Source of the DNA: a virus
IMG/VR virus record: IMGVR_UViG_3300032323_001198
Location: 1 to 59,633 of that record
Strand: one strand, 5' to 3'
DNA: 59,633 bases
A program made the translations under genes and the position numbers. Shown piece after piece: positions 15,468-44,433 of the stretch. Each line of letters opens with the position of its first letter. Position 1 is the first letter of the stretch. The notes beneath the pieces are model-generated. The model was not told the origin of the DNA, made no database searches, and worked only from the letters and a program-made list of their open reading frames with translations.

Positions 15468-16649
15468 ATGATTTTGTTCCAAAAAAAACTTTCTCCAACG
15501 ATTGAACATTTCAATCAAACATCTCCGTTAGAACATTGGTCGGCTGAGTTAAAAGAAGATTACTGTTTCTATTATAATTGGATTGATCAATTATATGGTT
15601 TTCGGTTTGATAATTTTTTAATCGAAACGCATATTAATTTTTTAAGGCAAAATCCTAATATCAAAATTGTTTACGATTTTAACGGAGAACCAATAGTTGA
15701 AAATATTTTATTGGATATATTGGAAACTGCACGACACTGGAAACTTAATGATAATCAAATTATTTTGATTGTTAGTAATATTTTACAAACAAATTTTGTC
15801 AATCAAAGACTAAAAGAAATTCGTAGTGTAACAACTTATGAGTGGAATTACGATATTAAAACTACTCTGATCTCTCAGCCTGCAAATAATATCGAAAAGA
15901 AAAAATTCAGCACCACTTGCAGATTACATAGACCCTGGAGATCTTATATAATTTGCAGATTAAAAGAACGACATCTCATAGATAATTTTCATTTTTCTTT
16001 TATGGGCTGTGAAAATAATATGACTGTTGCATTAGACAAAGTCATATCTGAAAACAAAGACATTAGTATTACTCTAGCAGAAGGTGACTGGAGTATTATT
16101 GCCAAACACGATAAAATTAAAAAAGACCTTACAAATATCTGCGGAATGTCATTAACAGCAGATATAAACGACTTCATTGATCTATGTCCGCATTATATAG
16201 AAAAAGAAAGATTTAAGACCGATGTCGAAACTCCTCAAGAAGTATTCCATTCGGATTTTCATCTTGTGATAGAAAATGGTTTTTTTGATTTGAACGAATC
16301 TGCGTATACTGTTCGATCATTTGAAATGGGGGAGAAAACATGGAAGGCTATTATAGCATCTAAACCTTTCTTAGTTTATTCAGATCCAGGTTATTTGTAT
16401 TCTTTAAGAAAACTAGGTTTCAAAACATTTGATCCTTGGATAGATGAATCATACGATAACGAAACAGATCCTAAATCTAGAGCAGAAATGATCATAGATC
16501 AAATTGAAAAAATTAATAGCCTAAGCATAGAAGAATATACTAACCTATTGCTAAATTGCAAGAGTATAACTGAACATAATTTTTCAATTTATTTTAATCT
16601 AAAGTTTAACCAACAAAACTTTACAGACATAAATTTTAATAAAATATGA
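15468..16649 (+). CDS. glycosyltransferase-like phage protein
   Basis: A 393-residue protein. The C-terminal 120 residues follow a pattern common in phage proteins and reminiscent of GT10-type glycosyltransferases: MGEKTWKAIIASKPFLVYSD, then GYLYSLRKLGFKTFDPWIDESYD, with the E-K-x-W donor-site block. The N-terminal half is helical and unassigned. The start is chosen after the promoter motif. It overlaps the next gene by four bases (ATGA), so it heads a three-gene operon with an Asp/Asn hydroxylase-like protein and a large unknown protein. Sugar donor and acceptor are unknown. Confidence 0.5.
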   Translation: MILFQKKLSPTIEHFNQTSPLEHWSAELKEDYCFYYNWIDQLYGFRFDNFLIETHINFLRQNPNIKIVYDFNGEPIVENILLDILETARHWKLNDNQIILIVSNILQTNFVNQRLKEIRSVTTYEWNYDIKTTLISQPANNIEKKKFSTTCRLHRPWRSYIICRLKERHLIDNFHFSFMGCENNMTVALDKVISENKDISITLAEGDWSIIAKHDKIKKDLTNICGMSLTADINDFIDLCPHYIEKERFKTDVETPQEVFHSDFHLVIENGFFDLNESAYTVRSFEMGEKTWKAIIASKPFLVYSDPGYLYSLRKLGFKTFDPWIDESYDNETDPKSRAEMIIDQIEKINSLSIEEYTNLLLNCKSITEHNFSIYFNLKFNQQNFTDINFNKI

Positions 16650-17386
16650 TATCCACTTCTTTAGATTTCTATAATAAAAACAAAAACATACCGTATAAAT
16701 TGCCGGCTCCGCCTGACACAAATCTAAATGATTATCAGTTATGTGACTGGTTGTTGAATCGTAGTGATTTCTCTTGGTTAGAACTAGACGTACAATTTGA
16801 TGTTGATAAATGGCAGAAAGAAATACTCAGTTGTAAAGATTTTTTAGTGCCGCACAGAGACAGTGAAAGTTCTGGATGGGAGAGCGCCTGCATACACGGA
16901 ATAGATATTCAATCCACAGGAGCGTGGACTAGATACGGGTATACAAACGAAGACGATGTTCCCTACCAATGGACTGAACTTGCAGATCAATGTCCGAATA
17001 TAAAAAAGTTTTGGTCAGAGTTTCCTTATGATAGTTACAGACGTATTAGGATCATGGCTGTAAAACCTGGAGGGTGTATAAATCCTCATAGCGATATGCC
17101 TGGCAAATTACCCGGAGAAGAAAACTTCGATGCATTAAAATTTGGTGTACCTATAAATGTAGCAGTAATACATCCTAAAGAATGCTACATGAGTTTAAAG
17201 GATCACGGAGTTGTTCCTTTTAAAGAGGGTAAGGCTTTTTTAATTAATATTAGAAATTATCATAGTGTAATAAATTTCTCAAACGAGACTAGATATCATA
17301 TTATTGCACACGGAAAACTTCAAAATAAAACTGACAAATTTGTAAAGTTAATATCGGATAGTTTTAGAAAACAATTTGTAAAATGA
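16646..17386 (+). CDS. aspartyl/asparaginyl beta-hydroxylase-like protein
   Basis: A 246-residue protein with the Asp/Asn hydroxylase core: RIRIMAVKPGG, H148-x-D150 (NPHSD), a PINVAVIHP strand, GKAFLINIRNYHSV with H206, and R216 (ETRYHI). These enzymes hydroxylate Asp or Asn side chains or related small molecules using 2OG. ATGA overlaps bind it to the genes on both sides. Together with 18596-19294 it represents a different oxygenase branch from the P4H and NWDD types in the same island. Confidence 0.78.
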   Translation: MISTSLDFYNKNKNIPYKLPAPPDTNLNDYQLCDWLLNRSDFSWLELDVQFDVDKWQKEILSCKDFLVPHRDSESSGWESACIHGIDIQSTGAWTRYGYTNEDDVPYQWTELADQCPNIKKFWSEFPYDSYRRIRIMAVKPGGCINPHSDMPGKLPGEENFDALKFGVPINVAVIHPKECYMSLKDHGVVPFKEGKAFLINIRNYHSVINFSNETRYHIIAHGKLQNKTDKFVKLISDSFRKQFVK

Positions 17387-18615
17387 ATGTAATTAAATTC
17401 GGTCAATATAAAAAAAGAAAAATTGTATTTTGTTTTTTAGATACATTGCATCTCTGTCAGGATAATTTTACTAAAGAAATAATTAAAAATCAATCCGACT
17501 ACGTAATATCTAGTTTAATCAGCAAAAGATTTAATGTATATCAAGGGCAAGACGAAGATCAATTATTAAGTTCCGCAGCAGAAGATGGATATGAATATGC
17601 TGTGATGTTTAGCACTGGCACTGAATTTATTAATGGAAAAATATTCTTTAAAAAAACCAAAGAATTAGTGAACACAGATTTTTTTATTTGCGGACATGTA
17701 TTGGATCGGAAAGATGCCTATTACGAATTACATCAACAATGTTATATTATAAATCTTAAAATTTACAAAAAGTTAGGTAGACCTTTAATTGGCAAACACA
17801 CGTGGAATTCTCCTCATCAACAGATAGAACCAAAAAGAAGTCTAGAAAATCATCACGATGAATACACTCCAAAATATGTAATGCCAGGTACAGATTTAAA
17901 AGATTATCAACATAAGTGCCACGGGTGGAATATTTTAAAAATAGCATTTGAGAATCAATTGCAGGTATTAGTTTTCGATGAAGAATTTAGATCAGGTAAG
18001 ACACATCATTATCCAGAGTCTCGGAAAGATTTTTATAAAAATTTAAGATGGATTTATTATAGAGAAAACGAATGTCTATATAATTTTGTTCACACTGAAA
18101 ATTCAGAATTTAAAAGAAGATTAACAGGTCAGTATGAACAGATAGTAATTCCGGCTAGTGGTACTTTATATCTAAACCTGATAGATAAAGGTGACGTGAT
18201 AATCTATGATTATAATCAAAAATCTTTAGACTATTGGCAAGAACACCTGCCTCGTAAAGAGAATGTTAATTATAATTTTGTAAAAACAGATCTGCTAATA
18301 GATAATAATTTGATAGATCAAATACAGGATAATAAATCAACATTAATTAATCTATCCAATATATTTGCCTATGAGGGTACCGCTGCATTTAAACCCTTGT
18401 TTTATAGATTACACAAAGAAAATCAATTAATAGAAAGTCTACAAAAAAAGATTCCAGATATTTTTATAATATTCTCAATACGATCTGTTACTGGTTTTTT
18501 AGAACTACCGCTTACTGGAAATTCGTCTCTCATCAAAACTACAGATATAGAAAAACTAAAAAGACCTACTTGGCATCAAAATGACGATTGGTTAATCAAG
18601 CCGTTACAATACTAA
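17383..18615 (+). CDS. two-domain protein, possibly glycosyltransferase plus methyltransferase fold
   Basis: A 410-residue protein of unknown function. Residues about 15-180 have GT-A-like character (YAVMFSTGTEF, FFICGHVLDR, CYIINLKIYKKLG). Residues about 240-375 contain IVIPASGTLYLNL and VIIYDYNQKSLDYW, reminiscent of a SAM-binding Rossmann fold without a proven Gly motif. I give both only as suggestions. It ends an operon of three, and its 3' end overlaps the opposite oxygenase gene by 20 bases. Confidence 0.45.
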   Translation: MNVIKFGQYKKRKIVFCFLDTLHLCQDNFTKEIIKNQSDYVISSLISKRFNVYQGQDEDQLLSSAAEDGYEYAVMFSTGTEFINGKIFFKKTKELVNTDFFICGHVLDRKDAYYELHQQCYIINLKIYKKLGRPLIGKHTWNSPHQQIEPKRSLENHHDEYTPKYVMPGTDLKDYQHKCHGWNILKIAFENQLQVLVFDEEFRSGKTHHYPESRKDFYKNLRWIYYRENECLYNFVHTENSEFKRRLTGQYEQIVIPASGTLYLNLIDKGDVIIYDYNQKSLDYWQEHLPRKENVNYNFVKTDLLIDNNLIDQIQDNKSTLINLSNIFAYEGTAAFKPLFYRLHKENQLIESLQKKIPDIFIIFSIRSVTGFLELPLTGNSSLIKTTDIEKLKRPTWHQNDDWLIKPLQY

Positions 18616-19294
18616 AATCATCAGCAAATTTATTTTGAATTTCTTCTAGAATAGAACTTTCTATGTCAAACCATATTTGTTTTTGATCTGTTTTAAAATT
18701 ATCAATTAGAGATTTTTTACAGGCATAATTTAACCAAGGACTTACTCGATCGTCAAAAACAAATCTAAATTTTTCTTTGCGGTTTCCTATATAATTCATT
18801 TGTACTCGTACAGGATTAACTAATACATTTTTAGGTAATAGTTTTCTCACAACAAGTTGTATTCGAGGAATTGAACCAAAGTTAGCCGCTGTGTGTCGAC
18901 AACCGGCATTCATTTCATACCATTCGCCGTCTACTTCTGTAGGAAACATCTGTTGATTTTTTAGATCAATAAGATAGGAATATTGCCCTTGAAGATTTAA
19001 GTGATATCGATCGTCTATGTCTGCATGACTATGATAACAGGTTCCCGGTTTAAGAACAATTAATCTTGCTTCGCCTATAGGTTTCGGTAAAGAATCCAAT
19101 ATATCCTCAAATACTGTACCACGAAAGTTGTCTTTAATTTTCCAAAAATCATAGAAAAAATCGCCCGACGGTTCGTTGAGTTCAGTTTTTATTTTATTAT
19201 CATCGCCGCTGTTTATAATAGAAGTAACATATTGGTCATTACATATGGACAATATTTTTTCTTTAGCAATCGAAATGGATATGGGCTTCAGCAT
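18596..19294 (-). CDS. aspartyl/asparaginyl hydroxylase-like 2OG oxygenase
   Basis: A 232-residue protein: GEARLIVLKPGTCYHSHAD with H90-x-D92, a YSYLIDL strand, NAGCRHTAANFG with H134, and R144 (IPRIQLVV). The layout matches the Asp/Asn beta-hydroxylase family. The last 80 residues are an extra, mostly helical tail. The ATG lies five bases after a TATAAATA on the minus strand. It is a single-gene unit between two plus-strand operons. Confidence 0.75.
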   Translation of the reverse strand: MLKPISISIAKEKILSICNDQYVTSIINSGDDNKIKTELNEPSGDFFYDFWKIKDNFRGTVFEDILDSLPKPIGEARLIVLKPGTCYHSHADIDDRYHLNLQGQYSYLIDLKNQQMFPTEVDGEWYEMNAGCRHTAANFGSIPRIQLVVRKLLPKNVLVNPVRVQMNYIGNRKEKFRFVFDDRVSPWLNYACKKSLIDNFKTDQKQIWFDIESSILEEIQNKFADDFSIVTA

Positions 19295-19336: not shown

Positions 19337-20611
19337 ATGTCTATTAATAATTCAAAAACTTTCTGCATGCATCCGTTTACCGGTCTTGCAACTAGAGAAG
19401 ACGGTGCGATCAAGATCTGCTGTCGAAGCCTTCCTATAGGTTGGATACAAGAAAACAGTTTAGAACAAGTCTGGAATAATGATAAAATGCAGCAGGTTCG
19501 CAAACAAGTTTTATGTGGTGAAAGACCAGATGTTTGTAAACCTTGTTTTGACTTAGAGGATCAAGGAGTTGAAAGTCTACGCCAACGACACGTCAATGGT
19601 GTTATTCCCGAAGCAAGAATAAATCTATACCCTAACGCCTTAGATCAACTCCGAGAAGATTATACTATGCCTTTTGAATTTCCTACTATGGAAATTAAAA
19701 TCAATAATCTCTGTAACCTAAAATGCAGAATGTGCAATCCTTTAGATAGCACAAGTTGGCAGGATTGGGATCAAGTGAAACCATTCTATGAAAAAGAAAA
19801 CAACTACTTGGTTCCTACCATAGCAAAATTAGTTCGAAAGCCTGGTCAATACATAGGACCGTTTGAAGACACAAATCACTGGTGGGAAAATTTTGAAAAA
19901 CTACTTCCTCATTTTCGCAGAGTAGAATTTGCCGGTGGCGAACCTTTAATGGATCCTTATCATTATCGTATTTTAGATATGTTAAAACCTTACGGAAAAA
20001 ACATAGAAATAAAATATGCTACCAATGGCACTGTGTTAGGAATTAAAGGCGGTAGGACCATTCATGATTATTGGCCTTATTTTAAATCTGTAGCAGTCAA
20101 TGTTAGTATAGACGGCATACATGATGTTTACAATTACATTCGTACTAATAGTAATTTTGCCGATGTAGAAAAGAATATAAAAGAAATACAAACTATTCCC
20201 AATGTAAGCAGAGTGGTCGGTGCGTTTACTGCTCAGGCTGCCAATATATTACAAATTTCTGAGTGTATTGATTATTTTTTAAATCAAATGAACATTGTTT
20301 TTTACAGTCACAGAGTTAGTTATCCTAATTGTTTATCAGCACAGGTTCTGCCTCAAGAGTTAAAACAGTTGGCTATAGAAAGATTACGGAATGTTGAAAG
20401 CAGATTATGGACATTTGATAAAATTAATCAAAGTAACCTACTTGAAAAAGTTACTCGACAGCAGATCAAAGATAATATAAATTATCTACAAGCCAAAGAT
20501 CAACATCATTTGTGGAATGATTTTCTAGAATTCAATAGAAAACTAGATGAAACTAGAAATCAAAAACTATTAGATGTGATCCCAGAATTCAAAGAATATG
20601 TTAACAATTAA
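19337..20611 (+). CDS. radical SAM enzyme with N-terminal SPASM/twitch-like Cys module
   Basis: A 424-residue enzyme. The radical SAM [4Fe-4S] motif is C126-x3-C130-x2-C133 (CNLKCRMC), with EFAGGEP further on. Before the core, residues 1-75 carry CMHPF, CC28-29 and C67-x2-C70 with a conserved G and W pattern, as in SPASM/twitch modules that bind auxiliary Fe-S clusters, here placed N-terminally. Such enzymes often modify peptides. It is the first of three plus-strand radical SAM genes in a row. It shares architecture with 23579-25000. Confidence 0.85.
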   Translation: MSINNSKTFCMHPFTGLATREDGAIKICCRSLPIGWIQENSLEQVWNNDKMQQVRKQVLCGERPDVCKPCFDLEDQGVESLRQRHVNGVIPEARINLYPNALDQLREDYTMPFEFPTMEIKINNLCNLKCRMCNPLDSTSWQDWDQVKPFYEKENNYLVPTIAKLVRKPGQYIGPFEDTNHWWENFEKLLPHFRRVEFAGGEPLMDPYHYRILDMLKPYGKNIEIKYATNGTVLGIKGGRTIHDYWPYFKSVAVNVSIDGIHDVYNYIRTNSNFADVEKNIKEIQTIPNVSRVVGAFTAQAANILQISECIDYFLNQMNIVFYSHRVSYPNCLSAQVLPQELKQLAIERLRNVESRLWTFDKINQSNLLEKVTRQQIKDNINYLQAKDQHHLWNDFLEFNRKLDETRNQKLLDVIPEFKEYVNN

Positions 20612-20613
20612 AA

Positions 20614-21510
20614 ATGTTTAAAGTTACTAGTGTATGGCCTCATCAAGATCAATTAAAAGTTGAATGGAATCTCGGTAAACGATGTAATTACGATTGCAGT
20701 TATTGTCCTGTCAGTGTGCATGATAACTTTAGTCCGCACACCGACATTAACATTTTAGAAAAAACTGTAGATCGTTTGTGTGAATTAGATAAACCTTTGC
20801 GTATTAGCCTAACTGGCGGTGAGCCTTGCGTACACCCGGACATAGAAAGTTTATTAGAATACTTTAAAAGAAAAAATATCTACTGGGTCAATATAACAAC
20901 TAACGGCACACGGGGATATCAATGGTATCTACAGCACGAAATGTTTTTTAATCATTTAGTTTTTAGTTTACATTTTGAGTTTGATTATACTCGAATAGTA
21001 GATACTATATTAAAATATTATGATAGCACACAACAAGATTTCTTTGTTAATGTTATGGCACACCACGAATATATGCCTCAGGTAAAAACCGTGGTTAAAA
21101 AATTCAAAGAGATTGGAATAAAATTTGCTATTAGAAGAATAAGGTGGACTGAAGGAGATCATAATGTCTTTGACGATCTAAGATATAACGGTGATGATCT
21201 TCAGTGGATTATAGACAACGATGCCACGGCTAAACCTAATTGCAGGATTGACAATGAGCAAATTATACACGCTAATGATGTAATAAAAAAACATATGAAT
21301 CAATTTAAAGGTTGGACATGTAATGCTGGATTAGAAAGCCTTATGATCAATTGGGATGGTGAAGTTCATCGTGCTACTTGCCGTGTTGGTGGCAGTCTAG
21401 GTAACATATACCAGGGTACGTTTACTGAGCAATTACAACCTATAAGTTGTACTAGAGATTGGTGTACCTGTGCAGCAGATATTCCTTTAACAAAGATTAA
21501 AAATGATTAA
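20614..21510 (+). CDS. radical SAM enzyme
   Basis: A 298-residue enzyme with C24-x3-C28-x2-C31 (CNYDCSYC), SLTGGEPCVHPD, and a C-terminal Cys set (WTCNAG, ATCR, SCTRDWCTC) likely to bind an auxiliary cluster. It begins two bases after the preceding gene and overlaps the next by eight bases. Closest relatives within the window are 21503-22594, 22587-23582 and 34364-35347, which all share the CNYxCxYC core. Substrate unknown. Confidence 0.85.
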   Translation: MFKVTSVWPHQDQLKVEWNLGKRCNYDCSYCPVSVHDNFSPHTDINILEKTVDRLCELDKPLRISLTGGEPCVHPDIESLLEYFKRKNIYWVNITTNGTRGYQWYLQHEMFFNHLVFSLHFEFDYTRIVDTILKYYDSTQQDFFVNVMAHHEYMPQVKTVVKKFKEIGIKFAIRRIRWTEGDHNVFDDLRYNGDDLQWIIDNDATAKPNCRIDNEQIIHANDVIKKHMNQFKGWTCNAGLESLMINWDGEVHRATCRVGGSLGNIYQGTFTEQLQPISCTRDWCTCAADIPLTKIKND

Positions 21511-22594
21511 AGTGGATGCTGTTAGACTTGTAAAACCAGAGCCTATGATGATCACTTGGGATGTTGGTCGCAGATGTAATTACGACTGTAGTTACTGTGA
21601 AATTTATCGACATGATAATATTAGTAAGTTTCACAGCATTGAAGAATATTTAAAAACATTTAAATTTATAAAGCAGTGGACTAACACGTATAATGATAAC
21701 AGAAAAGAAAAAGTATCTACAAATATAAATTTCACAGGCGGTGAACCTACACTTAACCCTGCTCTTTGGGAATTGGCTGACGTAATTAAAACAGACTCAG
21801 ACGAGTTTAATCTAAGTTTAACCACTAATGGTGCATGGAATAGAAAATATACAGACAAACTGTTAAAAAGATTCAACGGGGTTACGGTCAGTTATCACAC
21901 AGAAGGGCATTCTAATTTAAAAAAACAAGTAATAGAAAACATATTAGAATTATCAAAGACTAATATGCGTTTACAGGTAAATCTAATGATGCATGTAGAT
22001 CACTGGAATGAATGTTTAGAAGTTTTTGATATGTTAAAATCTAACAACGTGCTAGTAAAACCTAGGCCAATCGGTGACGGTAATATAGAACGCACTGGAT
22101 GGTTCATAGATTCAGATGGATCAAATAGAAGAACTAGTCATCAATATACTGCTGATCAACAACTGTGGTTTTCAACTGTAGCAGGTCACAATATTTCTGT
22201 ATGCGAAAACAAAACAGAAGGCACAGGGCTAGGAAGGGGGTGCTGCGGTGGTCGTTGTATGGAAGGCAAGATAAACAATCAATGGCAGGAAATTAAAATT
22301 ATTGATACTAATTTTAAAAACTGGAACTGTATGGTCGATTGGTTTTTCCTGCACATAGATCAACACACTGGTTTAGTTTACCATCATCAAACCTGTCAGG
22401 CTCTTCACGAAAATAAAAGAGGATCTTTAGGTAATCTTATAGATTCAGATATTTTAATAAAAGATCTAGAACAAAGAATGCTCAATAAAACAGCAATTGT
22501 CTGTCCCAATAATAGATGCGGCTGCGGAATGTGTATCCCAAAGTCTAAAGACAGCGTTGTTTTTAAAGAACTTTGGGACAGTGTAGTTAACTAA
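21503..22594 (+). CDS. radical SAM enzyme with Cys-rich C-terminus
   Basis: A 363-residue enzyme: C25-x3-C29-x2-C32 (CNYDCSYC), NFTGGEPTLNP, and a C-terminal region unusually rich in Cys (GRGCCGGRC, NWNCM, HQTCQA, VCPNNRCGCGMC), pointing to at least one auxiliary Fe-S cluster. It is the third gene of the plus-strand radical SAM operon. Its end overlaps the opposite radical SAM gene by eight bases, so plus- and minus-strand operons meet tail to tail. Confidence 0.85.
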   Translation: MIKVDAVRLVKPEPMMITWDVGRRCNYDCSYCEIYRHDNISKFHSIEEYLKTFKFIKQWTNTYNDNRKEKVSTNINFTGGEPTLNPALWELADVIKTDSDEFNLSLTTNGAWNRKYTDKLLKRFNGVTVSYHTEGHSNLKKQVIENILELSKTNMRLQVNLMMHVDHWNECLEVFDMLKSNNVLVKPRPIGDGNIERTGWFIDSDGSNRRTSHQYTADQQLWFSTVAGHNISVCENKTEGTGLGRGCCGGRCMEGKINNQWQEIKIIDTNFKNWNCMVDWFFLHIDQHTGLVYHHQTCQALHENKRGSLGNLIDSDILIKDLEQRMLNKTAIVCPNNRCGCGMCIPKSKDSVVFKELWDSVVN

Positions 22595-23582
22595 CCTTAT
22601 GTTTTGCTAAGGTTACTTCTCCGTTACATAAACACTGTAATTGTTTACATATAACTGGTTTAATTTCTGGTGAAAAATTCTGCACAAAATCTTTATCAAA
22701 AATATTAAAATAATAATCTAGCCCGTACAACTTCTGATTACAGTTTACAGTAATGTCGCCATTAAATAAAACCTTTATATCATTTACGCCAACGGTGCAT
22801 TCCCAACCAGAGAAGTAATTTAATTTGTTTAATCTTATCCAAGAATCAGAAGGCAATTCAAAAACTTCACCATCTTCAAATGTTACCCAATATCTGTTAA
22901 TGGTTCCTCTAAAAAATTCTTCTACTTCCTTAAAGTCGGGAACTCTTTTCTTTGCTGATTGCAAATAGTCTTTCTGCTCGGACGGATAACTGGTAACTCC
23001 GTCGATATGTATAGCCTTAAGGATAATAGGCCAATTATATTTGCTTTCTAATTGAAACTTTTCAACGATGCTTCGACATTTGTCAAAGTTCTTTGGATCC
23101 ATGAGTACATTGGCAACTACCATATGTTTATGAGAAAACAAGTAATCAGCCACTTCTATAATATGATTAGGATCACAAAATTCATTGTGAACAGATATCT
23201 CAATATGATCAAACAGTTTAGCATACTTTTCCCACCAATGTACTTTTCTAAATCCATTGGTAGCCATATGAACAATAATTCTATCCTGATACTTGCTTTT
23301 AAAATGGGTTAAAAACTCAGGCAAATGTTTCCATAAGGTAGTTTCGCCACCTAACAGATACAACTGTATAACATCTTTGTTATTTTTTAGGTAATAATCA
23401 AATAGGTGAGTAAAATTATTTTTTAATAATTCTACATTCTCTCCTGCGGGCCAAGGAATATCGCCTTCGTGAGAACCAGGAAAACAATAATTACAACTGT
23501 AATTACAGGTATTTCCTATTGCCCATTCTACTCTGATCTTTTTAGGATCATGATTGTTTTCAATTTTAATAATCTTTTTCAT
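22587..23582 (-). CDS. radical SAM enzyme
   Basis: A 331-residue enzyme with C26-x3-C30-x2-C33 (CNYSCNYC), YLLGGETTLW (GGE with T in place of P), and a C-terminal Cys cluster (WECTVG, TVNCNQ, PVICKQLQCLC). It is the last gene of a long minus-strand operon (27865 down to 22587) that also codes for a second radical SAM, two NWDD oxygenases, an amidinotransferase and a P4H-like oxygenase. It starts on an ATGA overlap with 23579-25000. Confidence 0.85.
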   Translation of the reverse strand: MKKIIKIENNHDPKKIRVEWAIGNTCNYSCNYCFPGSHEGDIPWPAGENVELLKNNFTHLFDYYLKNNKDVIQLYLLGGETTLWKHLPEFLTHFKSKYQDRIIVHMATNGFRKVHWWEKYAKLFDHIEISVHNEFCDPNHIIEVADYLFSHKHMVVANVLMDPKNFDKCRSIVEKFQLESKYNWPIILKAIHIDGVTSYPSEQKDYLQSAKKRVPDFKEVEEFFRGTINRYWVTFEDGEVFELPSDSWIRLNKLNYFSGWECTVGVNDIKVLFNGDITVNCNQKLYGLDYYFNIFDKDFVQNFSPEIKPVICKQLQCLCNGEVTLAKHKVS

Positions 23583-25000
23583 TCTACCAGTGTACTTAGT
23601 TCTGGGAAATACTCTTTGAAATTAGTCTTTCTAAGTGTATCCAATTGTTCTATATATTCTTTGAACGCTGGCAATAAATTAGTATGATCCTCTGCGTCCA
23701 TAAAGTCTAATACTGCCTGCCAGCGTTTCCACCCATATGGATTTTGTTTCCAAAAGTCGTCGTCTTGGCGATAATTTTCATGCAACCAATTAGCCAACTC
23801 CTCAAACTTACGTCTTACTTCTGCTTTGTCTTCTGGAGGTAAACAACGTATACTCAAGAATGTAGGAATGTACAATAAGTGCATATTAACAATGCCGCCG
23901 CCCGCTTGTATCCCCCCAGTGACATTTTCAAAGTTTATTTTCTTAAAATTTTGTTGTATCTTCCATTTTGCAAAATCTGGAAGATGTTTTATATTTAGAA
24001 TCTGTATAGCAGTAGCAATACTGACTTCTATGTTGCCAGGAGTGTTATCTAGTATATGAAGATTTTTTTCTATCTTTGACCAATCGCTGGGATATCTTAT
24101 ATAGTAATTTCTATCTCCTACAGCATCGATACTAAACCCTACTTTAACTTTTTTAAATTTTTTCCATAAATCTATAATCGAGTCGTCTATCAATAATCCG
24201 TTGGTATTATATCTAATTAATATTTTGTCAGCATATCCTTGTCTGATAATTTCTTCTAAGAATGTTTTGTGTTCTTTGATCAGTAAAGGTTCACCGCCTG
24301 CAAAATAAACCTGTTTGAGATTAGGAATTTGTGCATACATCTCTTTCCAGAATTCTGGATTTTCATGCCAATAATTATTAAAAGTTTTTTGATCCCACTG
24401 CATCTGGTCTTTGATTGCATCATGTTTGAACAAAGGAAATATCTTTTTATGATCCTGAACCCATAGACTGCTGTCATGCGGACTACACATTACACATTTT
24501 AAGTTACAGGTGTGTCCAAGTCTTAAATCTAAATAGACTAATTTTTCTGGTACAGTACCATCTTCTTCAGTCTGTTTAATTAATTCTTCTAGGTCAACAC
24601 CTTCCAACGACCAGTATGCTGTTTCCCAGATCCTTTTGCTAGCCACACCTTTACTTTCTTCTTTGAAACATTTTTGACAACTATTAGGTATGTTGCCTGC
24701 CATCATGGTAGTTCTAACTGAACGCATATATTCATTATTCCATGCGCTCAACGGAGTTTCATGACCAAAATTGGCAGGTGTTCCCTTTTCGTTTTTCACA
24801 AGACCGACTGTATGATCATTGCCTGCACCACTAGCGTTGGCGCTGCAACATAAACGCATATCCCCATTGGGTCTTGTAGCGAAATGTATCCAAGGTAAAG
24901 CACAGAATGTCGAAGATTCTGTTTTATCTTTGATTGTTTTTTGCCAAAAACCTATTTTAGATTCTTCAGGCTGCCACCAATATTCGTTTACATCATCCAT
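23579..25000 (-). CDS. radical SAM enzyme with N-terminal SPASM/twitch-like module
   Basis: A 473-residue enzyme of the same architecture as 19337-20611. N-terminal Cys module: C33 (CALPW), C51-C52 and C108-x2-C111. Core motif: C165-x3-C169-x2-C172 (CNLKCVMC), with YFAGGEPLL. The N-terminal module probably binds an auxiliary cluster. It lies between the NWDD oxygenases and the radical SAM at 22587-23582 in one minus-strand operon. A peptide or protein substrate is plausible by family; none is identified. Confidence 0.85.
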   Translation of the reverse strand: MDDVNEYWWQPEESKIGFWQKTIKDKTESSTFCALPWIHFATRPNGDMRLCCSANASGAGNDHTVGLVKNEKGTPANFGHETPLSAWNNEYMRSVRTTMMAGNIPNSCQKCFKEESKGVASKRIWETAYWSLEGVDLEELIKQTEEDGTVPEKLVYLDLRLGHTCNLKCVMCSPHDSSLWVQDHKKIFPLFKHDAIKDQMQWDQKTFNNYWHENPEFWKEMYAQIPNLKQVYFAGGEPLLIKEHKTFLEEIIRQGYADKILIRYNTNGLLIDDSIIDLWKKFKKVKVGFSIDAVGDRNYYIRYPSDWSKIEKNLHILDNTPGNIEVSIATAIQILNIKHLPDFAKWKIQQNFKKINFENVTGGIQAGGGIVNMHLLYIPTFLSIRCLPPEDKAEVRRKFEELANWLHENYRQDDDFWKQNPYGWKRWQAVLDFMDAEDHTNLLPAFKEYIEQLDTLRKTNFKEYFPELSTLVE

Positions 25001-27921: not shown

Positions 27922-28512
27922 ATGAGCTTTGATAAAGTAACCGAATTTGAAAATACAATCGCAGAATATTTTGGATCCCCATATGCTGTGGCTGTAGACT
28001 GTTGTACTCACGGTATCGAACTGTGTCTTAGATTGCAAGACATCAAAGAAACCCTATGTCCAAAACGTACATATGTTTCTGTTCCAATGACCCTAAAAAA
28101 GTTAGGCATTAAATGGGACTGGAATAACGAAGAATGGCAGGATTATTATTTTCTTCCTGGAACAAATATCATAGATGCGGCTGTTTTATGGAAACCAAAC
28201 AGTTACATACCTAATACTATGATGTGTCTTAGTTTTCAATTCCATAAACATCTAGGAATTGGCAGGGGTGGAATGATTCTTGTAGATGATTTAGAAACTA
28301 AAAATCAACTAATACGCATGAGTTATGATGGCAGAGATAGAAATATCTTTTGGCCAGAACAGAATATTTCTACTATGGGATATCATTATTATATGATACC
28401 AGAAGTTGCTGCCGCAGGAATAGAAAAATTTAATAAAATAAAAGATTTAGAACCTAAAAAAATAGGGTACTCTGATTACCCGGATCTTTCATTGCTTCCT
28501 GTTTTTAATTAA
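27922..28512 (+). CDS. minimal DegT/DnrJ-type PLP protein
   Basis: A 196-residue protein, about half the length of ordinary DegT/DnrJ/EryC1/StrS aminotransferases, which add amino groups to nucleotide sugars. Seen: AVAVDCCTHGIEL (cofactor phosphate region), DAA with D85, and FQFHKHLGIGRGG with K109 in the PLP-lysine position. The C-terminal domain is missing. It may be a reduced active enzyme or a repurposed fold. It is directly adjacent (no gap) to a B12-type radical SAM gene, with which it forms an operon. Confidence 0.7.
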   Translation: MSFDKVTEFENTIAEYFGSPYAVAVDCCTHGIELCLRLQDIKETLCPKRTYVSVPMTLKKLGIKWDWNNEEWQDYYFLPGTNIIDAAVLWKPNSYIPNTMMCLSFQFHKHLGIGRGGMILVDDLETKNQLIRMSYDGRDRNIFWPEQNISTMGYHYYMIPEVAAAGIEKFNKIKDLEPKKIGYSDYPDLSLLPVFN

Positions 28513-30411
28513 ATGAAAAATGTATATCTTATACAGGTAGTAGACAACTACGGACCTAATAAGTTTTTGCCGTTAGCAATTTCTTATCATTGGCTTGACG
28601 CTATCTCTGACGAATATGTCGCACAAACATATACTTTAAAAGAAGTATTGATAGAAAAAGAAAACATAGATTCATTTGTCAGTCGAATTGAAAAACCAGA
28701 TGTATTGGTAATGAGTTGTTATATATGGAATTGGAACTATAACTGCGCATTGGCTGAGCGAGTGAAAGAATTATGGCCTGATTGTTTTATAGTTGTTGGC
28801 GGTCCTCAAATTAGCACCACTGATGCTTTCTTGTTAAAAAAACATCCTTATTTTGATATAGGAGTGCTAGGCGAAAACGAAGGAGCATTAACTATAATTT
28901 TAAAAAATTTAGAAACTAGAAATTTCCAAGAACTTTTAGGAATCAGTTTACCAGGAAAAATTATTTCAGGTGTAACAAGAACAAAAAACTTAGACAGTTT
29001 ACCTAGTCCTATTTTATCTGGATTTTATGATCAAATAATTGATCAATACGAAACACGAAATCAACAAAAATTTTTATGGCAAGTTACTATAGAAACTATG
29101 AGAGGTTGTCCCTATCATTGTACATTCTGTGACATAGGCGATTCGTACTGGAACAAAGTACAGATGTTTGACTTAGAAAGAATTTACAAAGAAATTGATT
29201 GGATATCTGAAAAACAAATTGAATATGTGTCTGTATGCGATAGTAATTGGGGTATGTTTGACAGAGATTTAGATATCACAAGATATGTTATTGAAAAAAA
29301 ATTAGAAACTGGATATCCAAAAGTGTGGGACATAGACTGGGCAAAAAATAATTCTGAACGTATTAAAAGCATGGCCATATTAGATAAAAATGCAGGCACT
29401 AATCTTTTTAAAGGAATTACTTTTGCTTTACAAAGTTTAAATGACAACACCTTAGCAGCCATAGATAGATTTAATCTCTCAGAACAAACTATTAGAGATG
29501 CTATGGATTTTTATAAAAAGAATGATATTAAGACTTATTCAGAATTAATATGGCCTCTTCCAGAAGAAACAATCACAAGTTTCACAGAAGGTTTACAAAA
29601 ATTAATAGACATGGGACAAGAACATTTTTTAATGGTTCATCCCTTATCCCTTACTCCTAATGCTCCTATGAGCGATCCTAACTACTTAGATAAACATAAA
29701 CTTTCACAGAAGAAAGTTCCTTTAGATACATTTTGGTTAACAGTTGACGACGAGAATTCGTATATTGTAGAAACTATGGGAACTGTTGATTCAACTAGTG
29801 TTCTAAACACGCAAGAAGTATTAGACGGATATATGATTGCTCATTGGACCATAGTCATGTACTACTATGGATGGGGACATTATATAATGAAATATCTAAA
29901 GAAACAGGGCACCAAAGAAACAGAGTTTATATTAGACCTTGTAAATTATATCGAAACAAGTAAACAAGGTTTGTTTTATAATGAACACGCAGTTACAAGA
30001 TCCAATATAGAAGAAGTTATTAACAAAGGTACGTTCTGGGGTAGAAAAATAGACAGAACTTACTGGGAGTATAAATCTGCGACTTGTATATTTTTTCAAA
30101 AGAACAGACAACAGTTTATTGAAGAATTAACAGAGTTTCTTAAAAACGTCTATAACATAAACAACGAACAATTGATAGAAATTAATGACCTAATGTGCAT
30201 AGACTACAATAAAACATATCCAGTGATTTATCAAACTAAAAATAATTCAGTGATAAAAGATTTATTTGATCTACATACTGATTATGTAGAAATATCACAT
30301 GAGGATTTATCAGATCATACTGAAGAAGAATTTTTTAGAAAAGCCTATCACTACCAAAGAAAAAATCAATACTGGAAATGTTCAATTAAATCTTTGAGTA
30401 AAAATAGTTAA
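28513..30411 (+). CDS. B12-binding-type radical SAM enzyme
   Basis: A 632-residue protein. Residues 1-130 resemble a cobalamin-binding Rossmann domain (VLVMSCYIWNW, FIVVGGPQ, GVLGENEG), without the D-x-H-x-x-G motif, as is common in this class. The radical SAM core follows with C199-x3-C203-x2-C206 (CPYHCTFC). The C-terminal 200 residues are unassigned. Family members methylate unreactive carbons or carry out ring-forming chemistry. It is coupled to the DegT-type gene. The 3' end overlaps the opposite oxygenase gene by 30 bases. Confidence 0.82.
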   Translation: MKNVYLIQVVDNYGPNKFLPLAISYHWLDAISDEYVAQTYTLKEVLIEKENIDSFVSRIEKPDVLVMSCYIWNWNYNCALAERVKELWPDCFIVVGGPQISTTDAFLLKKHPYFDIGVLGENEGALTIILKNLETRNFQELLGISLPGKIISGVTRTKNLDSLPSPILSGFYDQIIDQYETRNQQKFLWQVTIETMRGCPYHCTFCDIGDSYWNKVQMFDLERIYKEIDWISEKQIEYVSVCDSNWGMFDRDLDITRYVIEKKLETGYPKVWDIDWAKNNSERIKSMAILDKNAGTNLFKGITFALQSLNDNTLAAIDRFNLSEQTIRDAMDFYKKNDIKTYSELIWPLPEETITSFTEGLQKLIDMGQEHFLMVHPLSLTPNAPMSDPNYLDKHKLSQKKVPLDTFWLTVDDENSYIVETMGTVDSTSVLNTQEVLDGYMIAHWTIVMYYYGWGHYIMKYLKKQGTKETEFILDLVNYIETSKQGLFYNEHAVTRSNIEEVINKGTFWGRKIDRTYWEYKSATCIFFQKNRQQFIEELTEFLKNVYNINNEQLIEINDLMCIDYNKTYPVIYQTKNNSVIKDLFDLHTDYVEISHEDLSDHTEEEFFRKAYHYQRKNQYWKCSIKSLSKNS

Positions 30412-31188
30412 ACCTATTTTTTTATTGTGCCCAGAGCAAGCACAATGCAGTCTAGTTCTTTCAAAGGCAAAACAACTACCAACATTCCAGTGGATTATAG
30501 AATTTAATGTCAGGCCGTGTAAAGTTTCTATAGGAATATGTGTGAAGTTTTGAGCATGTATCTGTTCATTAAATTTTAATTGTGGGTCATATCCTATTAC
30601 GTTTGTGTAATCATAACATCGACCATCAACTTTACTTGTTTTTAAATCTTGTCTTGCATCTATTAGATATCTAAGGGTAGATATAAATTTTTCATCTATA
30701 ATAAAATCACTTATAGTTTCTGGAGAATTTAAACATTGGTCTAATAGTATTCGAAGATCTTTAATATAGGACCAACTATTGAAACGATTAGGTAAATTGT
30801 ATTCAAAGGGTTCTATTTTTACTTTGCTAAATCTTGCGCTCTCCGAATGCCAATGGTTATCAAATAGTGCTGTTGATCCTATACCATCTACAGACAATGG
30901 AAAAATAATTACATGTCCTTTTCTTGAACTTTCATTTTTTCCGCTGTCAACATGTAGACTATAACTTATCTTGGTATCAAAAAATACAACTTCTTCTACA
31001 TGATAATCATAATCTAAAATGTTATCTAATACATTTTTAATACTGTACTTAGGCCATTGACTGTCCCATTGAGGATGTTTGCTTCTAACATCTGGCCTAT
31101 CATCAACTGTTTCATCGTCTGTATGAAAATAATCTAACAGAGATCTAATGTTGTCGTTGGATAATTGATCATTGAATATTTGAATCAT
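30382..31188 (-). CDS. 2OG/Fe(II) oxygenase-like protein
   Basis: A 268-residue protein with SYSLHVDSG (H79-x-D81), a GHVIIFPLS strand, and RTRLHCACSGHNKKIGLTIF with H248 and a following Lys that could bind 2OG. A roughly 110-residue insertion separates the metal motifs, longer than usual. It shares one base with the upstream oxygenase gene, forming a two-gene minus-strand operon. Substrate unknown. Confidence 0.65.
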   Translation of the reverse strand: MIQIFNDQLSNDNIRSLLDYFHTDDETVDDRPDVRSKHPQWDSQWPKYSIKNVLDNILDYDYHVEEVVFFDTKISYSLHVDSGKNESSRKGHVIIFPLSVDGIGSTALFDNHWHSESARFSKVKIEPFEYNLPNRFNSWSYIKDLRILLDQCLNSPETISDFIIDEKFISTLRYLIDARQDLKTSKVDGRCYDYTNVIGYDPQLKFNEQIHAQNFTHIPIETLHGLTLNSIIHWNVGSCFAFERTRLHCACSGHNKKIGLTIFTQRFN

Positions 31189-31679
31189 TATTTGTAGCCA
31201 GTTATCTGAAGTGCGTATCTGTCAACTTTGCTAAGATTATAGAAAGCATGAGAATCATAACTATTCCAAGAGAACCAATCTCCCGCTAACCATTCGCAAT
31301 AAACTTTATTTTTAACCTGTAATACTTGCCCCGGAGAACTATCCTCCAACATTAAAACTATTCTAACAACCGAATCTGCATTTTCTAAGTTATGTATCTT
31401 TGTATATCTTTCATATCTGTCAGAATGCAAAGGAATATATTGCCCAGGTGTAAAAAAGTTAACTGCGGCTGTTATACCTTTTAGATCAAATTTATCCAAT
31501 ATATGAGATAAAGGAAAATCTATATCGGTTTCGAAACAATTATAAAATTTCATCGAATCTATACTGTGTCCATATTTGGAATATTCGTCACAGAGAATAG
31601 GATCTGGATCAAAATTGTATTTTAGATCTTTGAATTGTTGAATATTCCAGGTTGATTCGATGTGTCCAAAATTTCTCAT
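31188..31679 (-). CDS. small 2OG/Fe(II) oxygenase-like protein
   Basis: A 163-residue protein related to 9021-9515: FTPGQYIPLHSD with H85-x-D87, SSPGQVLQVKN, SHAFYN with H144, and R154 (DRYALQIT). It opens the operon with 30382-31188. A TTAAATAT motif on the minus strand ends four bases before its ATG, so the message is probably leaderless. Confidence 0.72.
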   Translation of the reverse strand: MRNFGHIESTWNIQQFKDLKYNFDPDPILCDEYSKYGHSIDSMKFYNCFETDIDFPLSHILDKFDLKGITAAVNFFTPGQYIPLHSDRYERYTKIHNLENADSVVRIVLMLEDSSPGQVLQVKNKVYCEWLAGDWFSWNSYDSHAFYNLSKVDRYALQITGYK

Positions 31680-31709: not shown

Positions 31710-32690
31710 ATGTTAAGTTCGAACGAATGGGATACCCTCAAAACAGTAATTGTCGGTGATGCTACTGGTGCTAAAGTACCAAATGTAGATATCAGTCTGC
31801 GTACTGTAAATTATGCTGATGTAGTAGACGACAGTGAAATACCTGTAGGTCCTTATCCACAACAGGTTATTGACGAAGCCAATGAAGATCTAGAAATTTT
31901 TTGTAATTTTCTTAAAGAAGAAAATGTGACTGTACTTCGTCCAGAAAATATCGATCCAGAATACTACAATTACTGTCCTAGAGATGGTGTATTAGTTTAC
32001 AAAGATTTAATATTAGCCACTCCCCAACCTTTAAAATCTCGTCGTTTAGAATATCTTGCTTTAGACACTCATCTAAAAAATCATAGCGACCAAGCAAACT
32101 ATATCTTACAAAGGCCAGAATTTACAGACGAATTGTATAATACGTCATGTATAAAAAACAAAGATGTTCTTGCATTAAATGAAACAGAGCCTAGTTTTGA
32201 TGCAGCCAATGTTTTAAGATGCAATGACGATTTATATTATCTAGTAAGTAATAGCGGTAATAAAAAAGGTGCAGACTATCTACAATCACTAGTAGGTAAT
32301 TCGGCCAAGGTGCATACTTTAGAAAATATCTACAGTTATATGCATCTGGACAGCACTATTGCTTTTCTTCGAGAAGGTTTAATGTTATTGAATCCTAGCA
32401 GAATCAAAGACAAAAGCCAACTGCCTGCACCTTTACAAAGTTGGGACGTTGTATGGGCACCGGAGCCTATAGATATCGGTCATTATCCTGGATACTGTAA
32501 TGCTAGTATATGGATGAACATGAATGTATTTTCTATTAATCCGAATCTTATTGTCGTCGAAGAACATCAAGAACCACTAAGAAAATTATTAGAAGATTAC
32601 AATATAGACTGTGCTATGTTACCAATGCGTCATGAAAGAACATTAGGTGGCGGTTTTCATTGTGTAACGTTGGATTTGATTAGAAATTAA
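31710..32690 (+). CDS. glycine-amidinotransferase-like enzyme, second copy
   Basis: A 326-residue paralogue of 26092-27150. Catalytic blocks are intact: EPSFDAANVL, YSYMHLDST and GGGFHCVTLD with nucleophile C318. The N-terminus is shorter and the middle differs (no TTDWQ block), so acceptor specificity probably differs. It stands as a single plus-strand gene; TTTATAAA precedes the ATG. The last four bases overlap the opposite radical SAM gene. Two diverged copies suggest two amidination steps or two substrates. Confidence 0.85.
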   Translation: MLSSNEWDTLKTVIVGDATGAKVPNVDISLRTVNYADVVDDSEIPVGPYPQQVIDEANEDLEIFCNFLKEENVTVLRPENIDPEYYNYCPRDGVLVYKDLILATPQPLKSRRLEYLALDTHLKNHSDQANYILQRPEFTDELYNTSCIKNKDVLALNETEPSFDAANVLRCNDDLYYLVSNSGNKKGADYLQSLVGNSAKVHTLENIYSYMHLDSTIAFLREGLMLLNPSRIKDKSQLPAPLQSWDVVWAPEPIDIGHYPGYCNASIWMNMNVFSINPNLIVVEEHQEPLRKLLEDYNIDCAMLPMRHERTLGGGFHCVTLDLIRN

Positions 32691-33772
32691 TTTAATCCAG
32701 ATCTTTCTACAAACTGATCTTTGGGTTTTGAAATTGTTTGTTTTTCATTAACCCCGCAGGTTCTAGCACACACAATAAGTTTGTAATCATTCCAATAATA
32801 ATCCCAAACCGTTTGCCAAGCAGTTGAACTAAGAACATTTTTAATACCAACATTTACTGCATCTAATTGATCAATTCCACCTAAAGAATCAACTAGCAGG
32901 GAATATTGTTTTTTAATTTCTTGTCTAACAGGAAAAGTTAAGTCAGAAGTTTCTGTATAGTTGTACGGAGTTGATGCTAAAAAGCAACACGGAAATATTT
33001 TTTTATAAGCGTCTATATATATTTCTTTGTTGTTTAATACATAACAATCTATTTTAGATTCGCTTACCCAAGTTTTATAATTCTTGATCATATCTGGACT
33101 TATCAGTGTCACCTGATTGTTTCTAGGTGGTTCTAAGTGATACATAGTATTTCCAGATTTATCTACGACTTTGGATTTTTCTTCTAAAAATCTAGTGCTA
33201 TTTTTTACAGTGAATAAACTAAATCCTAGATCCTTGGCTCTCTGTCTTGCTTCGTCAACTTGATGCTCATTGTGTTTAAATTTTATAAAGACCCATTCAG
33301 CCGTGCCGCCTGCATCAATAAATGCTTTGGCATTACGTGTGACATTTTCGTAAGTGGTGCCTATTCTATACAAATGATGAGTATCTTCTAAACCATCTAT
33401 ACCAAATATTACAAAATGATTCTTAGGTAATTTTGTTACTAACGATTTCCACCACGCTTGAGATCTAGCACCACCATTGGTATGAATTCTAATTTGTAAA
33501 TCTGGATTGATTGCTGTGACGTATTCACACATTAGATCTAGATCATTATTAATTATAGGATCACCAAAGTTTCCACAAAAATAGATATTTTTAATTTGTC
33601 TAAGAACTTCCTCAGTGAATATATTTTGAAAGTCACTCAACGACCATTCGTTGATCTTTATATAAGGATTATCTAAGCCGCCTCTGAAATTTCTAGAACA
33701 CATAGGGCATGATGCCTGACAGTTGTTGGTAATTTCTAGATGTACAGAATCTAATTCTGAAAAATTAAACAT
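32687..33772 (-). CDS. radical SAM enzyme with C-terminal SPASM-like Cys module
   Basis: A 361-residue enzyme: C18-x3-C22-x2-C25 (CQASCPMC), IYFCGNFGDP in the GGE position, and a C-terminal module with DCYV, FPCCFL and VCARTC that likely binds an auxiliary cluster. It is closely similar in order of motifs to the split gene at 37318-38224. It overlaps the upstream methyltransferase gene by eight bases, in a three-gene minus-strand operon starting at 35347. Confidence 0.83.
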   Translation of the reverse strand: MFNFSELDSVHLEITNNCQASCPMCSRNFRGGLDNPYIKINEWSLSDFQNIFTEEVLRQIKNIYFCGNFGDPIINNDLDLMCEYVTAINPDLQIRIHTNGGARSQAWWKSLVTKLPKNHFVIFGIDGLEDTHHLYRIGTTYENVTRNAKAFIDAGGTAEWVFIKFKHNEHQVDEARQRAKDLGFSLFTVKNSTRFLEEKSKVVDKSGNTMYHLEPPRNNQVTLISPDMIKNYKTWVSESKIDCYVLNNKEIYIDAYKKIFPCCFLASTPYNYTETSDLTFPVRQEIKKQYSLLVDSLGGIDQLDAVNVGIKNVLSSTAWQTVWDYYWNDYKLIVCARTCGVNEKQTISKPKDQFVERSGLN

Positions 33773-44430: not shown

Positions 44431-44433
44431 TTT

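What the first reader, a model, noticed from the sequence alone, without database searches (positions are those of the whole stretch)
19337..25000. Five radical SAM genes in two tail-to-tail operons, two with the Cys module ahead of the core
Seen: three genes on the plus strand meet two on the minus strand with an eight-base overlap. In 19337-20611 and 23579-25000 a SPASM-like Cys module (C, CC, CxxC) precedes the radical SAM core; the other three have Cys-rich C-termini. Such density is unusual in any genome.
Basis: partly seen in the sequence, partly recalled or inferred. Interest (0 to 1): 0.75.

Follow-up and report, generated by a model that had tools for sequence, protein, structure and literature searches.

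The report
Conserved phage radical-SAM biosynthesis island
Five iron-sulphur "radical" enzymes packed side by side in a lake or sea virus of bacteria are the conserved heart of a larger gene island, also found in Bdellovibrio-like bacteria, that probably builds an unusual sugar-like molecule; such virus islands have been reported before but nobody knows what they make.

Summary
In detail: three plus-strand and two minus-strand radical SAM genes meet with an 8-base overlap. Two (19337-20611, 23579-25000) carry a SPASM/twitch Cys module before the core, and the other three carry it after. The Cys-first layout is not new: both proteins belong to NCBIfam NF033640, N_Twi_rSAM. Rich radical SAM clusters are already reported in Campylobacter and marine T4-like phages (PMC2853527, PMC5332604). 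The five genes are the core of a 9-enzyme island. Its convergent layout recurs in 95 of 105 relative groups; long relatives carry 7-19 radical SAM genes each. Its closest cellular kin are chromosomal islands of some Bdellovibrionota, beside glycosyltransferases. The window also encodes a StrB1-type inosamine-phosphate amidinotransferase with its triad intact and a mini-DegT aminotransferase; the same cassette sits among glycosyltransferases in Synechococcus phage S-SCSM2R. Best reading: synthesis of an unusual amino/guanidino sugar or cyclitol for a surface or virion glycan, not peptide maturation (no precursor found). The product is unknown.

The parts
19337..20611 (+). TwA: N_Twi_rSAM radical SAM enzyme, SPASM/twitch Cys module before the core (C10, C28, C29, C67, C70; core C126, C130, C133)
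   Evidence: NF033640 332 bits (cut-off 170); SPASM residues 10-70 and Radical_SAM 121-285; these Cys >=99% in 123 homologues
19352..19561 (+). N-terminal SPASM/twitch module of TwA (about residues 6-75)
   Evidence: Pfam SPASM match, residues 10-70
20614..21510 (+). R2: radical SAM enzyme with C-terminal auxiliary-cluster Cys (236, 256, 279, 284, 286)
   Evidence: Radical_SAM 49.3 bits; core and C-terminal Cys 100% in 123 homologues; model pLDDT 90; PDB matches include viperin-like enzymes, BlsE, anSME, BtrN and SpeY
21503..22594 (+). R3: radical SAM enzyme with nine conserved C-terminal Cys (247, 248, 252, 276, 298, 334, 339, 341, 344)
   Evidence: Radical_SAM 44.1 bits; these Cys 100% and core Cys 97% in 33 homologues
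22587..23582 (-). R4: radical SAM enzyme, paralogue of R2, C-terminal Cys 262, 281, 312, 317, 319
   Evidence: Radical_SAM 43.9 bits; these Cys 99-100% in 76 homologues at a median of 37% identity; clusters with R2
23579..25000 (-). TwB: N_Twi_rSAM radical SAM enzyme, Cys module before the core (C33, C51, C52, C108, C111; core C165, C169, C172)
   Evidence: NF033640 411 bits; these Cys >=99% in 137 homologues; model pLDDT 89; 27% identical to TwA over full length
24653..24916 (-). N-terminal SPASM/twitch module of TwB (about residues 29-116)
   Evidence: SPASM match, residues 33-111, 20 bits, just under the 21.5 cut-off; NF033640 alignment starts at residue 29
34364..35347 (-). R8: radical SAM enzyme, part of the conserved core, at the island edge
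   Evidence: Radical_SAM 43.9 bits; present in 63 of 79 relative groups; found beside TwB in Bdellovibrionota, 45-49% identical
33765..34373 (-). MT: conserved small protein, methyltransferase-like by eye only, usually with the core
   Evidence: present in 63 of 79 relative groups; in Bdellovibrionota core loci; no Pfam match
32687..33772 (-). R7: radical SAM enzyme with C-terminal Cys (CC and two later Cys)
   Evidence: Radical_SAM 31.2 bits; present in 75 of 79 relative groups
28513..30411 (+). B12-binding radical SAM, nearest to the KedN5-type C-methyltransferase family but far below its cut-off
   Evidence: B12-binding and Radical_SAM over cut-off; NF033712 217 bits against cut-off 700
37318..38224 (+). 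R9: radical SAM core (37318-37983) with its C-terminal Cys part in a second overlapping ORF (37964-38224)
   Evidence: Radical_SAM 36.4 bits; split ORFs
31710..32690 (+). GATb: StrB1-type inosamine-phosphate amidinotransferase, catalytic Asp/His/Cys conserved
   Evidence: 246 bits to PDB 1bwd; D179, H227, C332 aligned; 57% to Synechococcus phage S-SCSM2R
26092..27150 (-). GATa: second amidinotransferase (same PHROG as GATb)
   Evidence: phrog_25854; 34% to the CP220 'glycine amidinotransferase'
27922..28512 (+). mini DegT/DnrJ/EryC1 sugar/cyclitol aminotransferase homologue (196 aa), Lys-containing FQFHKHLG motif kept
   Evidence: PF01041 64 bits; WbpE and AHBA synthase hits; 54% to S-SCSM2R
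31188..31679 (-). 2OG-oxygenase-like gene paired with GATb
   Evidence: 43% to S-SCSM2R '2OG-Fe(II) oxygenase' adjacent to its amidinotransferase; no Pfam match
16646..17386 (+). Asp/Asn beta-hydroxylase-like oxygenase, usually paired with the 17383 gene
   Evidence: PF05118 35 bits; pair recurs in relatives
18596..19294 (-). oxH: conserved gene next to TwA, oxygenase-like by eye
   Evidence: present in 65 of 79 relative groups; no Pfam match
48122..48508 (+). IscU Fe-S scaffold
   Evidence: TIGR01999 226.9 bits, cut-off 192.4
48480..48806 (+). A-type Fe-S carrier (IscA-like)
   Evidence: TIGR00049 80.4 bits, cut-off 58.8

Best explanation
The five genes are the conserved core of a phage biosynthetic island whose radical SAM enzymes, each with an extra Fe-S cluster in a twitch/SPASM-type module, act with oxygenases, aminotransferases and amidinotransferases on a sugar or cyclitol. 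Proposed steps: DegT-type amination and StrB1-type transfer of an amidino group give an amino/guanidino sugar or cyclitol; radical SAM dehydrogenation, epimerisation or C-methylation and 2OG hydroxylation tailor it; glycosyltransferases attach it to the host surface or to the virion. Plausible uses are excluding rival phages or changing receptor recognition. Phage-encoded IscU and an A-type carrier would help supply Fe-S clusters. Shown here: gene content, invariant Cys ligands, conserved layout, an intact amidinotransferase triad, glycosyltransferase neighbours in relatives. Inferred: the substrate class, the reaction order, the use on a surface.
For: All radical SAM and auxiliary Cys are invariant or nearly so. 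The TwA-R2 pair and convergent TwB are conserved: the TwA scan gave 45 of 45 long loci with R2 and TwB, the R2 scan 47 of 47 with TwA and TwB. GATb matches inosamine-phosphate amidinotransferase 1bwd at 4e-72 with D179/H227/C332 aligned. The DegT homologue hits WbpE and AHBA synthase. S-SCSM2R has DegT (54%), a radical SAM, the oxygenase (43%) and GATb (57%) in one operon with several glycosyltransferases. The CP220 cluster has radical SAMs, an amidinotransferase and two nucleotide-diphospho-sugar-transferase-fold proteins. In Bdellovibrionota, glycosyltransferase family 2 is the commonest Pfam family beside the core (12 of 84 neighbours). R2's fold hits include BtrN, SpeY and BlsE, which act on aminocyclitols or a sugar nucleoside. 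Marine T4-like phages carry radical SAM cassettes in a host-recognition island with glycosyltransferases (PMC7029224). IscU and carrier in the window.
Against: R2's best structural hits also include viperin-like enzymes and peptide maturases (anSME, EpeE, SkfB), so fold alone does not give the substrate. Neither N_Twi structure nor sequence matches any solved enzyme beyond the radical SAM core. The aminotransferase/amidinotransferase cassette is variable: found in few relatives, while the radical SAM core is nearly constant, so the core may do something independent of it. In the window itself no glycosyltransferase reaches a Pfam cut-off among the genes scanned.
Confidence: 0.42

Rival explanations
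1. The enzymes modify a protein, such as a tail fibre or collagen-like virion protein, or a host protein: radical SAM and prolyl/aspartyl-hydroxylase-like oxygenases act on side chains, and glycosyltransferases add sugars to them.
For: Asp_Arg_Hydrox and prolyl-hydroxylase-type 2OG proteins; the last window ORF reads as collagen-like and large tail-type proteins flank the island (by eye); SPASM enzymes often act on proteins or peptides, and anSME, SkfB and SuiB are among the fold hits.
Against: StrB1-type amidinotransferase and DegT aminotransferase are small-molecule enzymes; no target protein co-conserved with the core was found.
Confidence: 0.22
2. RiPP maturation: the SPASM/twitch radical SAM enzymes modify a short phage-encoded precursor peptide.
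For: SPASM/twitch modules are common in peptide maturases; ribosomal peptide maturase families are among the weak profile hits.
Against: No conserved precursor-like ORF within 3 kb of the core in 236 loci; the clear conserved small gene in the window is an Hc1 histone. No NCBIfam RiPP maturase model comes near its cut-off. The genes are packed without gaps in the window. A precursor elsewhere in the genome is not excluded.
Confidence: 0.1
3. Nucleic-acid hypermodification or a nucleotide-analogue function, against host nucleases or rival phages.
For: Viperin-like enzymes are the top PDB hits for R2 and viperin_w_prok is a leading weak profile hit for R3 and R4; a QueD-like gene is present; PP-loop QueC-like proteins are common in relatives.
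Against: All viperin scores are far below cut-off (29-52 against 180 bits); no recognisable nucleotide hydroxymethylase in the window scans; amidinotransferase, DegT and glycosyltransferase context points elsewhere.
Confidence: 0.1
4. General metabolic help to the host (iron-sulphur or cofactor supply), with no dedicated product.
For: IscU and an A-type carrier in the window; Nishimura et al. proposed coordination of Fe-S supply (PMC5332604).
Against: IscU was found in few relatives while the radical SAM core is nearly constant; the radical SAM enzymes match no known cofactor pathway over cut-off.
Confidence: 0.06

Closest known systems
NCBIfam NF033640, N_Twi_rSAM (twitch domain-containing radical SAM protein)
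   Same: 19337-20611 and 23579-25000 are full-length members, 332 and 411 bits against cut-off 170: Cys module first, then radical SAM core.
   Different: Nothing in architecture. The family's function is not given by the model; here two diverged paralogues (27% identical) are kept together in nearly all the phage islands.
Radical SAM cluster of Campylobacter phages CP220/CPt10 (PMC2853527)
   Same: Five clustered radical SAM genes, a putative glycine amidinotransferase, T4-related phage, exchangeable metabolic region, sugar-transferase-fold neighbours.
   Different: CP220 proteins in that stretch match mainly R7/R9, R3 and R4 at 22-35% and no N_Twi enzyme was matched there; GATa is 34% identical.
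T4-like marine EVG TARA_ERS488813_N000010 (PMC5332604) and pelagimyophage host-recognition islands (PMC7029224)
   Same: 12 radical SAM genes with an A-type Fe-S carrier; radical SAM gene cassettes in a hypervariable island with tail fibres and glycosyltransferases.
   Different: Sequence relation to the present core was not tested (those records were not compared).
Synechococcus phage S-SCSM2R cassette (PQ898602)
   Same: mini-DegT 54%, oxygenase 43%, amidinotransferase 57% to the window, with a radical SAM.
   Different: Single operon full of glycosyltransferases; lacks R8, MT and the N_Twi pair (no phage record matched R8 or MT; no N_Twi match in it).
Bdellovibrionota chromosomal islands (e.g. 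L252, L256, L260)
   Same: TwB, R8, R7 and MT side by side, and homologues of about 20 further island families.
   Different: Chromosomal, with family 2 glycosyltransferases; close TwB gene in only 3 of 59 sampled genomes of the phylum.
StrB1 inosamine-phosphate amidinotransferase (PDB 1bwd)
   Same: GATb aligns over its full length with the catalytic triad.
   Different: No streptomycin-type pathway around it; substrate unknown.

Membership tests
NF033640 N_Twi_rSAM | whole-protein score over the curated cut-off (170 bits) | tested here: met
   332.4 and 410.8 bits
NF033640 N_Twi_rSAM | SPASM/twitch Cys module N-terminal to the CxxxCxxC core, Cys conserved | tested here: met
   SPASM at residues 10-70 of TwA and 33-111 of TwB (the latter just under Pfam cut-off), core later; Cys >=99% conserved
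Radical SAM superfamily (PF04055) | over Pfam cut-off and conserved CxxxCxxC in all five genes | tested here: met
   37-49 bits against 29.5; Cys 97-100%
RiPP maturation system with radical SAM/SPASM maturase | conserved precursor peptide gene near the maturase | tested here: not met
   no such conserved small ORF within 3 kb in 236 loci; elsewhere in the genome not testable with a partial record
RiPP maturation system with radical SAM/SPASM maturase | maturase over cut-off of a RiPP maturase model | tested here: not met
   best RiPP-type scores far below cut-offs
Viperin / pVip | over cut-off of NF038283 (180 bits) | tested here: not met
   29-52 bits
StrB1-type amidinotransferase (GATb) | catalytic Asp, His, Cys | tested here: met
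   D179, H227, C332 of 1bwd aligned to identical residues
Aminocyclitol biosynthesis pathway | complete set: cyclitol synthase or dehydrogenase, aminotransferase, amidinotransferase, known product | tested here: inconclusive
   amidinotransferase and a shortened aminotransferase present; no cyclitol synthase seen; product unknown
Campylobacter phage CP220-type radical SAM module | homologous radical SAM genes plus amidinotransferase in T4-like phage | tested here: inconclusive
   amidinotransferase 34%, radical SAMs 22-35% and no N_Twi pair in the CP220 stretch
T4-like phage (Gp23 major capsid) | Gp23 in the same genome | tested here: inconclusive
   Gp23 not searched in this fragment; found in 5 of 18 long relatives, including the 4 longest (186-364 kb) and a 145 kb one

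The most novel reading that the evidence does not exclude
T4-like phages of lakes and seas and some Bdellovibrio-like bacteria share an undescribed biosynthetic module, built on two N-terminal-twitch radical SAM enzymes plus R2, R7, R8 and MT, that makes a new class of radical-tailored amino/guanidino glycan or aminocyclitol serving invasion of, or competition over, Gram-negative cells.
Probability: 0.2. Interest if true: 0.8.

Novelty: new variant of a known kind. Interest (0 to 1): 0.52.

Why it matters
Radical SAM clusters in T4-like phages have been noted since 2010 without a function. This work isolates a small, nearly constant core (TwA, R2, TwB, with R7, R8, MT) from variable cargo, shows its Fe-S ligands are under strong constraint, and finds the same core in bacterial chromosomes of the Bdellovibrionota. 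It also ties the cargo to a StrB1-type amidinotransferase and, in a cultured Synechococcus phage, to glycosyltransferases. That makes the question testable: the S-SCSM2R cassette and the chromosomal loci can be assayed for a modified sugar or cyclitol. It also gives targets for a radical SAM subfamily (N_Twi) whose chemistry is not stated by its model and for which no solved structure was found here.

Tried and rejected
RiPP precursor search: small ORFs of 20-99 aa in gaps within 3 kb of core genes in 236 loci; the larger clusters were antisense or shadow frames (including ones over a tRNA-like element), an Hc1 histone, and a few small genes that are absent from the window. Viperin-like antiviral enzyme: scores far below cut-off. 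Bdellovibrionota as the phage's host: weak, because the window's IscU had no match in seven Bdellovibrionota genomes but matched an MAG labelled Neisseriaceae at 82%, while the KDO-8-P synthase reached only 55-61% in a sample of that MAG's class; the host stays unknown. Direct descent from the Campylobacter module: homology too weak. Solved-structure matches for TwB, the Bdellovibrionota glycosyltransferase-like protein and the 17383 protein: none useful. A pairwise link of the PP-loop protein to one chromosomal neighbour failed, though a profile search found 2 cellular loci. The near-DNA search of the first 20 kb in phages found only tRNA-sized matches. L249, titled Thermoplasmata (TwB 67%), groups inside the phage clade and is taken as a probable viral contig in a MAG.
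Full report
WHAT IS THERE. The window is a 59,633-base IMG/VR virus record, 37% G+C, with 16 tRNA genes. The five ORFs named in the finding exist at the stated coordinates and overlap tail to tail by eight bases at 22587-22594. All five pass the Pfam Radical_SAM cut-off. The window has nine such genes in all: 19337, 20614, 21503, 22587, 23579, 28513, 32687, 34364 and 37318. I call the five TwA, R2, R3, R4 and TwB, the conserved others R7 (32687) and R8 (34364), and the small protein at 33765 MT.

THE CYS MODULES. In TwA and TwB a SPASM-type module precedes the radical SAM core (TwB's Pfam SPASM score is just under cut-off). Both are members of NF033640, N_Twi_rSAM, so this arrangement is a known subfamily. 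They are 27% identical to each other over their length. In 123 TwA homologues (median 69% identity) and 137 TwB homologues (median 66%), the five N-terminal and three core Cys are 99-100% conserved, while other Cys are 19-39%. R2's three core and five C-terminal Cys are 100% conserved, R3's nine C-terminal Cys 100% (core 97%), and R4's five 99-100% at a median identity of 37%. Predicted structures are confident (R2 pLDDT 90, TwB 89). TwB has no solved relative beyond the core.

THE ISLAND. Scans with TwB, TwA and R2 each returned 79-80 viral loci, most 60-97% identical. After merging near-identical loci there are 136 groups (the window included), 79 with a locus of at least 17 kb. TwA is in 73 of these, R2 in 73, TwB in 77, R7 in 75, R8 in 63 and MT in 63; all six are in 53. 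TwA and R2 share a strand in 105 of 105 groups that have all three genes, and TwB is convergent with TwA in 95 of 105. The scans are independent of each other's gene: all 45 long loci found with TwA have R2 and TwB, all 47 found with R2 have TwA and TwB, and of the 31 found with TwB 23 have TwA and R2. R3 and R4 are less constant. Around this core the gene order is a patchwork of oxygenase-like genes, short dehydrogenases, aminotransferases, PP-loop proteins, SGNH-type proteins, sugar epimerases and more radical SAM genes (some of these names rest on motifs read by eye). Eighteen long relatives carry 7-19 radical SAM genes each, and five of them, including the four longest, encode the T4-type capsid protein Gp23. 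One edge of the island is stable: R8 next to an Hc1 histone gene and ThyX.

CARGO IN THIS WINDOW. GATb (31710-32690) matches StrB1 inosamine-phosphate amidinotransferase (PDB 1bwd) at 4e-72 over its full length, with the residues aligned to D179, H227 and C332 identical. That these three are the StrB1 catalytic triad is from my own knowledge of the enzyme. A second amidinotransferase (26092-27150), a 196-aa DegT-family protein (27922-28512), a B12 radical SAM protein (28513-30411) and oxygenase-like genes lie close by. Synechococcus phage S-SCSM2R has the DegT (54%), oxygenase (43%) and amidinotransferase (57%) genes and a radical SAM gene in one run with several glycosyltransferases. IscU (48122) and an A-type carrier (48480) are in the window.

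CELLULAR KIN. The genome scan found TwB homologues mainly in MAGs of Bdellovibrionota at 44-51% identity, on contigs up to 936 kb. There TwB sits with R8 (45-49%), R7 and MT, and glycosyltransferase family 2 is the commonest Pfam family among 84 neighbours. Profiles of the phage families find homologues of about 20 further island families in these loci. N_Twi enzymes are numerous in several of these genomes, and none passes the cut-off in 14 control genomes. But only 3 of 59 sampled genomes of the phylum have a close TwB, so the module is patchy. In a tree the phage TwB proteins form one clade (support 1.0, including one probable mis-binned contig) within a 0.99 clade with the cellular TwB group; phage TwA also forms one clade with Bdellovibrionota sequences nearest, at lower support. 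The direction of transfer is not resolved.

WHAT IS KNOWN. Timms et al. (PMC2853527) described 11-12 radical SAM proteins in Campylobacter phages CP220 and CPt10, with an exchangeable cluster of five plus a putative glycine amidinotransferase. Nishimura et al. (PMC5332604) described a T4-like marine genome with 12 radical SAM genes and an A-type carrier. Pelagimyophage islands gain and lose radical SAM cassettes in a host-recognition region (PMC7029224). So the kind of feature is known. What I did not find described in the papers searched is this six-gene core, its constancy, and its presence in Bdellovibrionota. Subscription papers and preprints were not searched. No isolate phage record matched R8 or MT.

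HOW IT MOST LIKELY WORKS. The only cargo enzymes whose substrate class can be read with confidence, the StrB1-type amidinotransferase and the DegT homologue, point to amino/guanidino sugars or cyclitols. R2's fold neighbours include BtrN, SpeY and BlsE, but also viperin-like enzymes and peptide maturases, so this is suggestive only. Glycosyltransferases accompany the relatives in three settings: Synechococcus phage, Campylobacter phage and Bdellovibrionota. I therefore favour synthesis of an unusual surface or virion glycan. The weak point is that the radical SAM core is constant while the amidinotransferase cassette is not, so the core could act on a different, shared substrate. No peptide precursor was found near the core.

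VERDICT. The two claimed surprises, Cys-first architecture and radical SAM density, have precedents. The conserved core and its link to Bdellovibrionota and aminocyclitol-type enzymes are the interesting part.

Noticed in passing
37318-38224: A ninth radical SAM gene is split: the core ORF ends at 37983 and the C-terminal Cys part reads in another frame from 37964. Assembly error, frameshift or two chains; not resolved.
   Followed up: partly
35411-35518: tRNA-like element of about 108 bases at the island edge: Rfam tRNA 25.3 bits, below the gathering score of 29, and missed by ARAGORN; shadow ORFs over it recur in relatives.
   Followed up: partly
35567-35758: Hc1 histone H1-like protein (PF07432, 51.5 bits against 23.5) next to the conserved island edge.
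   Followed up: no
11836-12675: By eye, an N-terminal cold-shock domain fused to an oxygenase-like protein; in relative L033 a cold-shock-like start is fused to a glutathione-peroxidase-like protein.
   Followed up: no
44401-45258: Phage-encoded KDO-8-phosphate synthase, over the curated cut-off, best 55-61% identical to the bacteria sampled.
   Followed up: partly
58912-59633: Window end looks collagen-like (Gly-x-y repeats by eye), next to large tail-type proteins at 49160-58521.
   Followed up: no
L142:17422-18891: Tryptophan-halogenase-like gene in a relative's island, 35% identical to the 'PrnA' gene near the S-SCSM2R cassette.
   Followed up: no
L249: A 3.5 kb contig labelled Thermoplasmata archaeon carries TwB at 67% identity and groups within the phage clade: probably a viral contig in a MAG.
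   Followed up: partly
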